NCBI RefSeq assembly: GCF_002909235.1
Contig: NZ_PHQQ01000008.1
Span: 1-64,000, forward strand
Length of the DNA: 64,000 bases
Source of the DNA: Arenibacter catalasegens
Lineage (GTDB): Bacteria; Bacteroidota; Bacteroidia; Flavobacteriales; Flavobacteriaceae
Reading direction: 5' to 3'
The position numbers were made by a program, and so were the translations under genes. The first letter of the stretch is position 1; every line of letters begins with the position of its first letter. The notes beneath the pieces are model-generated. The model saw only the letters and a list, made by a program, of their open reading frames with translations. It had not been told where the DNA came from and ran no database searches. Below are positions 25,068-26,242 of the stretch, piece after piece.

Positions 25068-25262
25068 GTGGGCAAGAAGAAAAAACAGGACAAGAAAATC
25101 GAAAAAAAGCTGAAAAAGGCTTTAAAAAAGGAGCAAAAAACGGCTCTAAAAGAAATGGTTCCCCATGGCTGCAAAACCAAGTGCTGCGACAAGTACAAAA
25201 AGGCGGAATCCAAGAGGTGCAGTCGTTGTCCTTGTTTTGATCTGATGCAGAAAGTTGCTTAA
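25068..25262 (+). CDS. Small Lys- and Cys-rich protein of unknown function
   Basis: A 64-residue protein starting with GTG. The first half is a highly basic helix made of Lys, Glu and Leu; the second half holds six cysteines (HGCKTKCCDKYKK, then RCSRCPCFDLMQK), an arrangement suited to binding a metal ion. I recall similar short proteins in other flavobacteria ending in a CPCFDL-like segment, which argues for a real gene. The opposite-strand frame 25019-25213 has no such features. Metal or nucleic-acid binding is a guess. Confidence 0.6.
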   Translation: MGKKKKQDKKIEKKLKKALKKEQKTALKEMVPHGCKTKCCDKYKKAESKRCSRCPCFDLMQKVA

Positions 25263-25286: not shown

Positions 25287-25413
25287 GGCATTACGCATTT
25301 AATTGTATTCAGACAAGCACAGTGAAGTAATCTCATAGCCTTGTGGTAATAAAAAACTGAAGTAAATCCATTACAAACAGATTGCTTCGTCACTTGCGCT
25401 CCTCGCAATGACG
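25287..25413. repeat. Palindromic repeat unit 1 (degenerate left arm)
   Basis: The left arm 25287-25336 is decayed (GGCATTACGC..., ending GTGAAGTAATCTCAT). The right arm 25376-25413 begins AACAGATTGC and ends CTCGCAATGACG. The 39-base space between the arms is longer than in units 2 and 4. No gene is present. Confidence 0.75.
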
Positions 25414-25457
25414 TTTATAAGGATTAGTGAATACCCATGCTAATCTCAAGAGTTACC

Positions 25458-25563
25458 GTCATTGCGAACTTGGCTGTCCACAGGCAGGCATAGTGAAGCA
25501 ATCTCATAGAAGTGAGCCCTAATTTAACAGATTGCCACCTCACTAAAGTTCCTCGCAATGACG
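25458..25563. repeat. Palindromic repeat unit 2
   Basis: The left arm 25458-25507 begins GTCATTGCGAACTTGGCTGT and ends GAAGCAATCTCAT; the right arm 25526-25563 begins AACAGATTGCC and ends CTCGCAATGACG. The outer GTCATTGCGA/TCGCAATGAC and inner GCAATCT/AGATTGC segments pair, leaving an 18-base loop. Inside the left arm, CTGTCCACAGGCAG can form a small hairpin of its own. Confidence 0.85.
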
Positions 25564-25612
25564 TCTCATTAGGCATAGTTAAACAGAAAGCCTTAACGAC
25601 CATAGTTGCACA

Positions 25613-26090
25613 TCATTGCCAACTTGGCTGTCCGCAGGTAGACAAAGTGAAGCAATCCCTTAGTAGGGTGTTCTTATGTTTACCTCAAATACTGTTCAAT
25701 CAAAGTAAAACAACCATCCTATAGCCAAATCTTCCCAATTGGGATTATCTCTGTTAACTAATTGTTCCTTTCGCCTCCTATTTCCAGCCTTTATCTGCTT
25801 TTCTCTTTCAATAGCTTTACGAATGTCACTGAATTCCTCGAAGTAAATTAATTTATTACAATTATAACGAGAAGTAAAACCATGAAATATACCAATTTTA
25901 TGCTCATAAATACGCTTAACTAGATTGCTGGTAACCCCCACATATATAACCGTATTATTCTTATTAGTAAGTAAATAAACATATGACTTTTTCATTCTTA
26001 TCAGTTTCGTTATCGAAAAATTGAATGCGGCAAGGAATGGTGCTGTGAGAACAGAGAGATTGCCACGTCACTAACGTTCCTAGCAATGAC
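25613..26090. mobile_element. Palindromic repeat unit 3 carrying a GIY-YIG gene in its loop
   Basis: The left arm 25613-25660 (TCATTGCCAACTTGGCTGTC... to GAAGCAATCCCT) and the right arm 26058-26090 (GATTGCCACGTCACTAACGT... to GCAATGAC) are the same arms as in units 1, 2 and 4. Instead of an 18-base loop they enclose 397 bases holding one complete minus-strand gene. This is the layout of an element with terminal inverted repeats. Mobility is inferred and not shown by any target duplication that I can see. Confidence 0.6.
25696..25995 (-). CDS. GIY-YIG nuclease-domain protein
   Basis: A 99-residue protein consisting of a single GIY-YIG domain: YVYLLTNKNNTVIYVGVTSN (residues about 5-24, holding the GIY and YIG-like strands), the catalytic Arg in LVKRIYEH, and a conserved Glu in the YFEEFSDIRKAIEREKQIK helix. 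It belongs to the short UPF0213/YhbQ-like group, present in many copies in Bacteroidota genomes. It nicks or cuts DNA if active; no partner domain is fused. It fills the loop of a long palindromic repeat, with gene-less copies of that repeat on both sides. A role in spreading the repeat is proposed in the findings. Confidence 0.85.
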   Translation of the reverse strand: MKKSYVYLLTNKNNTVIYVGVTSNLVKRIYEHKIGIFHGFTSRYNCNKLIYFEEFSDIRKAIEREKQIKAGNRRRKEQLVNRDNPNWEDLAIGWLFYFD

Positions 26091-26136
26091 GGCTAATTTA
26101 GAGTCATGAGATACAGTCTGAACACCTTGGTAGTCC

Positions 26137-26242
26137 GTCATTGCGAACTTGGCTGTCCGTAGGCAGACATAGTGAAGCAACCTCATTGCTTTGAACCCAA
26201 ATATAACAGATTGCCACGTCCCTTACGCTTCTCGCAATGACG
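26137..26242. repeat. Palindromic repeat unit 4
   Basis: The left arm 26137-26186 (GTCATTGCGAACTTGGCTGT... to GAAGCAACCTCAT) and the right arm 26205-26242 (AACAGATTGCCACGTC... to CTCGCAATGACG) are separated by 18 bases, as in unit 2. The arms are nearly identical to unit 2, while the loop sequences differ. Confidence 0.85.

What the first reader, a model, noticed from the sequence alone, without database searches (positions are those of the whole stretch)
25613..26090. GIY-YIG nuclease gene sits exactly in the loop of a long palindromic repeat, beside three gene-less copies
Seen: four units share the same two arms (outer GTCATTGCGA/TCGCAATGAC, inner GCAATCT/AGATTGC). In units 2 and 4 the arms are 18 bases apart. 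In unit 3 the same arms are 397 bases apart, and the space is filled by one complete 99-residue GIY-YIG gene. Known: such short GIY-YIG proteins occur in many copies in Bacteroidota; REP/RAYT systems show a nuclease-type gene flanked by palindromes with many gene-less copies. Inferred: unit 3 is an autonomous element and units 1, 2 and 4 are MITE-like derivatives mobilised in trans, a GIY-YIG counterpart of RAYT/REP. I know of no described system of this kind, but cannot search.
Basis: partly seen in the sequence, partly recalled or inferred. Interest (0 to 1): 0.78.

Follow-up and report, generated by a model that had tools for sequence, protein, structure and literature searches.

The report
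Nuclease gene paired with palindromic repeats
A tiny DNA-cutting-enzyme gene sits inside a pair of mirror-image repeats, and many relatives of this gene in distant bacteria are bracketed by matching repeats, which suggests the enzyme is the missing partner that spreads a common class of bacterial palindromes.

Summary
The arms are CGTC-type repetitive extragenic palindromes (REPs), which a 2013 survey (PMC3733652) said "apparently lack a dedicated transposase". The pairing is general: of 80 relatives chosen by protein similarity, 44 have an inverted repeat between their flanks, against 1 of 277 control positions and 13 of 245 other ORFs. Where strict arms lie on both sides (25 of 80) the element is about 420 bp. 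Arm type follows the protein tree (19 changes against 37.7 in shuffles) and co-varies with residues 70-72. In 18 Arenibacter genomes the element is present, duplicated, broken, inverted or missing at two loci; four intact copies are under purifying selection. I conclude that this is a REP-associated GIY-YIG nuclease acting on its own palindromes, a counterpart of RAYT/REP. Whether it moves REPs to new sites or homes into existing ones is open; no cleavage or new insertion was shown. No paper linking the two appeared in the (capped) listings of ten searches.

The parts
25611..26091 (.). Unit 3: REP arm - GIY-YIG gene - REP arm (candidate element, 481 bp)
   Evidence: Arms and spacing read directly; same arrangement in related genomes G008 and G015 with intact outer arms and in G017 with one base off in the right outer arm
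25696..25995 (-). GIY-YIG nuclease gene, 99 codons; residues Y7, Y18, G20, R28, H32, E65 invariant among 13 relatives of the genus
   Evidence: PF01541 E 3.8e-18; alignment A1; AlphaFold model mean pLDDT 92.2; dN/dS 0.07-0.24 over 6 pairs of 4 intact orthologues
25611..25658 (+). Unit 3 left arm (CATCATTGCCA...GAAGCAATCC), tag outward, slightly decayed
26057..26091 (+). Unit 3 right arm (AGATTGC...TAGCAATGACG), tag outward
25457..25563 (.). Unit 2: gene-less REP dimer, 24-nt loop
   Evidence: (z -5.1)
26136..26242 (.). Unit 4: gene-less REP dimer, 24-nt loop
   Evidence: (z -4.5)
25287..25413 (.). Unit 1: gene-less, left arm decayed, right arm good
25564..25610 (.). 47-nt linker between units 2 and 3; closely similar linkers recur between units in G001, G008 and G015 (ending ..AAAGCCTTAACGACCANAGTTGCA), so units look like tandem copies of arm-loop-arm-linker

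Best explanation
The 99-residue GIY-YIG protein is the dedicated nuclease of the CGTC/TGTC-tagged palindrome (REP) in which its gene sits. It recognises the arm, probably as an extruded hairpin or cruciform, using among others the hinge of residues 70-72 near Glu65, and nicks or cuts it. Repair of the break from a gene-bearing copy through the homologous arms copies the gene into other REP loops and expands units into tandem arrays. Gene-less dimers are the targets and by-products, and may be carried in trans. Shown here: the anatomy, its recurrence in many phyla, the match between arm type and protein clade, presence/absence/inversion between species, and purifying selection. Inferred: binding, cutting, and the direction of spread.
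For: 80 relatives chosen by protein only: an inverted repeat between flanks (score >=30) in 44 of 80, against 1 of 277 same-locus control positions and 13 of 245 other ORFs, or 5 of 114 whose flanks stay clear of the GIY gene. GTCATT[GC]C at 2.92/kb within 400 bp of the gene against 0.17/kb beyond 1 kb; 54 of 80 loci have at least one. Strict GTCATTGCGA..GCAATC arms within 300 bp on both sides in 25 of 80, element 368-636 bp, median 422; 6 of 33 downstream arms start right at the stop codon; tags mostly outward (upstream 26 forward/15 reverse, downstream 13/33). Left and right tag words agree in 35 of 100 loci against 12.6 expected. Arm type on the protein tree (92 labelled loci): 19 changes against 37.7 +/- 1.4, 0 of 400 shuffles as few; within 34 Flavobacteriaceae loci alone 8 against 16.6. 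Residues 70, 71 and 72 are the three columns most associated with arm type: G71 in 48 of 52 TTGC loci, 5 of 40 others. REP>=3 in 67 of 164 GIY+ genomes against 7 of 85 GIY-; in Y1-transposase-free genomes 31 of 98 against 3 of 65. At the window's locus in 18 Arenibacter genomes the gene is in 6, arms without gene in 3, neither detected in 9; at a second locus the element is in 3 of 18 and inverted in one. Nearest fold UPF0213 BH0048 (E 8.2e-5), then, weakly, Slx1, a branched-DNA nuclease (E 0.013). dN/dS 0.07-0.24.
Against: 36 of 80 loci show no flank inverted repeat at score 30, and 12 of 80 have no GTCATT within 400 bp. The residue-arm covariation rests on 1 to 3 independent contrasts, so shared descent is not excluded. 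Genome-level co-occurrence is partly confounded: Y1 transposases also correlate with REPs (40 of 86 against 34 of 163), and 7 GIY-negative genomes have >=3 REPs. In the four multi-copy genomes examined (25 loci) no near-identical elements at unrelated loci were found; the duplicates seen are local. No target-site duplication or insertion-site consensus was found. No biochemical evidence.
Confidence: 0.68

Rival explanations
1. True RAYT-like transposition: the GIY-YIG protein excises and inserts REP dimers at new sites in trans; unit 3 is the autonomous element, units 1, 2 and 4 are MITE-like copies.
For: Gene-less arms outnumber genes: 34 arm-pattern matches in the own genome, the window's own included, for one gene of this clade; dispersed also at C4, C14, C36, C42. 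In two hand-picked sets of loci, relatives of one clade mostly lie at unrelated places (59 of 66 and 114 of 120 pairs share no coding similarity in 1.35 kb on either side).
Against: No clean new insertion, target-site duplication or near-identical dispersed copies seen; the arrays look like tandem recombination. GIY-YIG enzymes hydrolyse rather than rejoin DNA (general knowledge, recalled).
Confidence: 0.3
2. Passenger: REP clusters are tolerated intergenic landing sites, and the GIY-YIG gene lodges there without acting on them.
For: Other repeats also crowd these intergenic regions; 36 of 80 loci lack a flank inverted repeat at score 30.
Against: Arm sequence follows protein clade, also within one family; three dissimilar GIY-YIG genes in one genome (G224) have three arm types; tight, oriented spacing; other ORFs in the same loci rarely show it (13 of 245).
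Confidence: 0.13
3. REPs are moved by another enzyme (Y1/RAYT), and the GIY-YIG protein trims or resolves REP hairpins as a host or anti-mobile function.
For: Y1 transposases correlate with REPs genome-wide, 40 of 86 against 34 of 163; the structure-specific nuclease Slx1 shares the fold.
Against: None of the five Y1 hits of the own genome lies in an arm pair (one has a lone one-mismatch word 139 bp away); GIY-REP co-occurrence persists in Y1-free genomes, 31 of 98 against 3 of 65; the gene sits inside the repeat, patchily, with broken copies.
Confidence: 0.12
4. The arms are only terminators or mRNA hairpins serving expression of an ordinary gene.
For: Downstream arms lie close to the stop codon (median 19 nt in 33 loci), and units 2 and 4 fold well.
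Against: No need for clade-matched arm sequences, outward tags, or dispersed gene-less copies.
Confidence: 0.05

Closest known systems
REP / RAYT systems (REPtrons, REPINs; TnpA-REP)
   Same: Short tagged palindromes in many gene-less copies, mostly head-to-head dimers, beside or around a single small nuclease gene; patchy across species
   Different: Known enzyme is an HUH tyrosine transposase of the IS200/IS605 group; here an unrelated GIY-YIG nuclease of about 95 residues and arms of the CGTC/TGTC class
CGTC-tagged REPs (Di Nocera et al. 2013, PMC3733652; CGTC-1 includes Neisseria dRS3)
   Same: CGTC or TGTC tag, stem beginning AT, mostly head-to-head dimers, reported in Bacteroidetes among 5 phyla; the TGTC-ATTCCTGC-GCAG-GCAGGAAT-CCA arms of L105-L107 fit tag, 8-bp stem, 4-nt loop and CCA tail
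   Different: That paper reports no associated gene ('apparently lack a dedicated transposase'); the window's own arms have a 5-bp ATTGC/GCAAT stem with a long variable loop, outside its stem/loop limits
UPF0213 / COG2827 short GIY-YIG proteins (BH0048, PDB 1zg2; COG number recalled)
   Same: Similar length and fold; only PDB hit by sequence (E 1.3e-4) and best by structure
   Different: No function or repeat association was known to me for this family (recall); no NCBIfam model passes its cut-off
Free-standing GIY-YIG homing endonucleases, e.g. phage SegB (PMC13096335)
   Same: A GIY-YIG gene next to its target, cutting followed by homologous recombination, segmental tandem amplification
   Different: SegB is a phage enzyme linked to tRNA genes; here the presumed target is a dispersed REP palindrome and the gene lies in its loop

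Membership tests
REPtron (RAYT-REP) | Gene flanked by REPs that also occur gene-less elsewhere in the genome | tested here: met
   broad set (44 of 80 by inverted repeat, 25 of 80 by strict arms)
REPtron (RAYT-REP) | Enzyme is an HUH/Y1 tyrosine transposase | tested here: not met
   PF01541 GIY-YIG, no other Pfam hit at E <= 0.001; five Y1 hits in the genome lie elsewhere, none in an arm pair
REPtron (RAYT-REP) | Enzyme cleaves cognate REP DNA | not testable with these tools
   Only covariation evidence
CGTC REP | CGTC/TGTC tag outside the stem, stem starting with AT | tested here: met
   Window arms CGTC-ATTGC; base before GTCA is T in 35 and C in 18 of 59 arms
CGTC REP | Stem 8-9 bp, loop 4-5 nt, CCA-like tail | tested here: not met
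   Window arms: 5-bp stem, long loop. Met by the L105-L107 arm type as defined in PMC3733652 sections 6 and 17
CGTC REP | Mostly head-to-head dimers | tested here: met
   Units 2 and 4, and copies at C4, C14, C36 and C42 in the stretches printed; not counted genome-wide
GIY-YIG nuclease (UPF0213-like) | GIY-YIG domain with conserved Tyr, Arg, Glu (roles recalled) | tested here: met
   Invariant Y7, Y18, G20, R28, H32, E65 in 13 sequences; fold
Homing endonuclease | Gene copied into a cognate site lacking it after cleavage | tested here: inconclusive
   Occupied and gene-less sites coexist; direction and cleavage not shown
MITE and its autonomous partner | Same terminal inverted repeats on autonomous and non-autonomous copies | tested here: met
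   Units 2, 3, 4
MITE and its autonomous partner | Target-site duplication or precise insertion | tested here: inconclusive
   No consensus seen outside the tags beyond a pyrimidine before GTCA; G011 keeps one hybrid palindrome where G001 has the cluster

The most novel reading that the evidence does not exclude
REP-GIY-REP units of about 0.4 kb are among the smallest self-sufficient mobile elements of bacteria: a single GIY-YIG domain that reads its cognate CGTC-type palindrome through a three-residue specificity hinge and spreads both itself and gene-less REPs, which would make these proteins the missing mobilisers of CGTC REPs across bacterial phyla.
Probability: 0.35. Interest if true: 0.93.

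Novelty: new variant of a known kind. Interest (0 to 1): 0.82.

Why it matters
CGTC-tagged palindromes occur in several phyla, and the 2013 survey that named them found no enzyme to move them. A matched nuclease, with a visible residue-to-arm correspondence, turns an open question about how these repeats spread into a simple cleavage experiment. It would also give many short GIY-YIG 'UPF0213' genes a likely function and add a second, unrelated enzyme class to the REP world.

Tried and rejected
Rejected: chance palindromes (controls). Rejected: explanation by a neighbouring Y1/RAYT gene in the own genome. Tried without result: arms around the own genome's other GIY-YIG genes (saw 8 of the other 15; all 16: only the window's has these arms on both sides, only L003 has the GTCATTCCTGC type, the remaining 14 have neither pair); a first flank inverted-repeat scan on 46 loci with 330-bp flanks, where the window's own locus (L002, L087) scored no better than the null, the repeat being decayed and the null inflated by related loci; an insertion-site consensus outside the tags (only T/C before GTCA); near-identical copies at unrelated loci of one genome (25 loci of G191, G236, G061, G224; only local duplications, in G191 and G236); a genus-level empty site for L231 (the genus holds one genome); a tree-aware test of the residue-arm link (1-3 contrasts, no power); NCBIfam (nothing above cut-off). 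The automatic arm labels contain errors (L237 was labelled TTCC although TTGC arms lie beside it); 56 of 148 loci were left unlabelled because no tag fell in the six classes, the two sides disagreed, or (L205) no translation was made. The genome tally used only the TTGC arm pattern, so genomes with other arm types count as REP-free; the size cut uses rounded sizes typed from the listing. Paper searches showed no paper joining GIY-YIG to REPs among the titles and abstract starts listed; most listings were capped (e.g. 15 of 1,325, 15 of 77), and the library lacks bioRxiv and most subscription journals, so this is not proof of novelty. Of PMC3733652 I read the abstract, found passages, sections 6, 14, 16 and part 1 of section 17; of PMC13096335 the abstract and found passages; other papers only as search listings.

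Full report
WHAT IS THERE. Between a ferritin-like gene with a conserved 64-aa ORF behind it and an SSB-like gene lie four units of one palindromic repeat. Units 2 and 4 are gene-less dimers: CGTCATTGCGA...GAAGCAAYCT, 24 nt, AGATTGC...TCGCAATGACG. Unit 3 has the same arms, a little decayed, 398 nt apart at their inner ends, and between them one complete 99-codon GIY-YIG gene on the minus strand (PF01541, E 3.8e-18). Unit 1 has one good arm. Units 2 and 4 fold far better than shuffles (z -5.1 and -4.5), while the unit-3 arms folded singly do not.

IT IS A KNOWN REPEAT CLASS. The own genome holds 34 matches to the arm pattern GTCATTGCGAN{4,34}GCAATC, the window's included, with none for the reversed control; the copies at C4, C14, C36 and C42 carry no GIY-YIG gene in the stretches printed. 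Of the 16 GIY-YIG hits of the own genome only the window's has these arms on both sides; one more (L003) has arms of a second type on both sides, and 14 have neither pair. The outward tag CGTC, the stem starting with AT and the head-to-head dimers are those of the CGTC REPs of Di Nocera et al. 2013 (PMC3733652). [quoted passage not shown] The window's arms depart from their definition in stem and loop length; the second type in this genus (TGTC-ATTCCTGC-GCAG-GCAGGAAT-CCA) fits it.

THE PAIRING IS GENERAL. I searched species genomes with a profile of 13 Arenibacter-genus proteins (A1) and took the 80 loci returned (at least 562 relatives confirmed, best 80 kept), chosen by protein similarity only; they span many phyla. 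An inverted repeat between the two 450-bp flanks (score >=30) occurs in 44 of 80, against 1 of 277 shifted positions in the same loci; even flanks of different loci pair in 13.5% of cases, because arms are alike across species. Other ORFs of the same loci give 13 of 245, or 5 of 114 when their flanks stay clear of the GIY gene. GTCATT[GC]C occurs at 2.92 per kb within 400 bp of the gene and 0.17 per kb beyond 1 kb; 54 of 80 loci have at least one, and 68 of 80 have GTCATT. With the strict GTCATTGCGA..GCAATC arm within 300 bp, 25 of 80 loci have it on both sides; the element is then 368-636 bp, median 422; 6 of 33 downstream arms start directly at the stop codon; tags point mostly outward. Against: 36 of 80 have no flank repeat at that score, and 12 of 80 no GTCATT nearby.

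ARMS MATCH THE PROTEIN. Over 148 loci, 100 have a GTCA tag in the expected orientation on both sides within 200 bp, and the next four bases agree in 35, against 12.6 expected. On a tree of 147 proteins, arm type (92 labelled) needs 19 changes against 37.7 +/- 1.4 in shuffles, with 0 of 400 as few; among the 34 labelled Flavobacteriaceae loci 8 against 16.6; among the 58 broad ones 13 against 19.4. The three alignment columns most tied to arm type are neighbours, residues 70, 71 and 72: glycine 71 in 48 of 52 TTGC-arm loci and 5 of 40 others, where tryptophan prevails (30 of 40). They lie at the junction of helices 58-70 and 73-83 in a confident model (mean pLDDT 92.2), five residues from the invariant E65. 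Only 1-3 independent contrasts exist, so descent alone is not excluded. Within one genome (G224) three dissimilar GIY-YIG genes carry three different arm types (read; loci).

MOBILITY, AS FAR AS SHOWN. At the window's locus in 18 Arenibacter genomes (the window's and 17 others): GIY-YIG gene in 6 (window, G001, G007 frameshifted, G008 twice with one copy broken, G015, G017); arms without the gene in G004, G011, G013; neither detected in 9. Of these 9 the interval is not wholly seen in three: it is split over contig ends in G005 and G006, and G009 has 325 masked or unknown bases. G015 has at least seven units with one gene. At a second locus a GIY element of the other arm type is present in 3 of 18 (G000, G001, G017) and inverted in G000; the interval was measured in 16 of 18, and in G011 it is a single hybrid palindrome. 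In two hand-picked sets of loci of one clade or arm type, most pairs share no coding similarity in 1.35 kb on either side: 59 of 66 and 114 of 120; the window's locus does share flanks with two loci of other genera (L202, L203). Local duplications occur in G191 and G236; in the four genomes examined I found no near-identical copies at unrelated loci, and no target-site duplication was seen. Four of the five intact orthologues (G017 left out) give dN/dS 0.07-0.24 in six pairs, one with dS above 1: the protein is maintained.

GENOME-LEVEL TEST. In 249 family genomes (164 with a GIY relative at E <= 1e-10; 102 with the arm pattern), three or more arms occur in 67 of 164 GIY+ and 7 of 85 GIY- genomes. 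Y1 transposases also correlate (40 of 86 against 34 of 163), so part of this is general richness in mobile DNA; but among Y1-free genomes the contrast stays (31 of 98 against 3 of 65), and in genomes of 2.5 Mb or more it is 64 of 152 against 7 of 48. None of the five Y1 hits of the own genome lies in an arm pair. These counts ignore relatedness.

MECHANISM. By fold the protein resembles UPF0213 BH0048 and, more weakly (E 0.013), Slx1, a nuclease of branched DNA. I propose that it recognises its own palindrome, likely as hairpin or cruciform, cuts it, and is copied by recombination through the arms; tandem arrays follow, as reported for the GIY-YIG enzyme SegB, whose breaks lead to segmental amplification by homologous recombination (PMC13096335; abstract and passages read). 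Cutting, binding and copying are inferred.

NOVELTY. Ten paper searches (listed under Tried and rejected) showed no paper on GIY-YIG with REPs in their capped listings. I file it as a new variant of the REP-plus-nuclease kind, with an unrelated enzyme; it is not a RAYT REPtron, because the defining HUH transposase was tested and is absent.

Noticed in passing
G000:C19:93363-94208 (L004 600-1810); G000:C25:10483-11008 (L008, L011); also L010, L101, L102, L103, L116; G191:C34:6991-9751: Another short GIY-YIG group lies near tRNA genes (Pro, Arg, Asn): 8 of 34 loci scanned had one. Often tandem, period about 320-365 bp; in L004 each unit carries a partial tRNA-Pro-like copy and the array ends at a full tRNA-Pro. 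It resembles SegB-type tRNA-linked amplification. The G191 array was not scanned for tRNAs.
   Followed up: partly
L079 (G012:C2:228500-233100) and L072 (G005:C23:1-1700): In two relatives the same ferritin-SSB interval holds unrelated tandem repeats of about 335 and 344 bp instead of REP units.
   Followed up: no
window 25068-25262 (+): 64-aa Lys/Cys-rich ORF without Pfam hit, whose C-terminal part is matched in all 17 other Arenibacter genomes (70-95% identity).
   Followed up: no
L022, L025, L027 (G000 C36, C42, C14): Further repeat families (CGTCACTTCGAGTG.., CTTCCGTC..) are interleaved with the REP dimers.
   Followed up: no
G011:C15:56323-56347 (L287): Single hybrid palindrome TGGATTCCTGCCTGCGCAGGAATCCA where G001 has a REP cluster with the GIY element: a possible footprint of deletion or the pre-insertion site.
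   Followed up: partly
window 5114: Lone exact match to the outer arm TCGCAATGAC outside the array.
   Followed up: no
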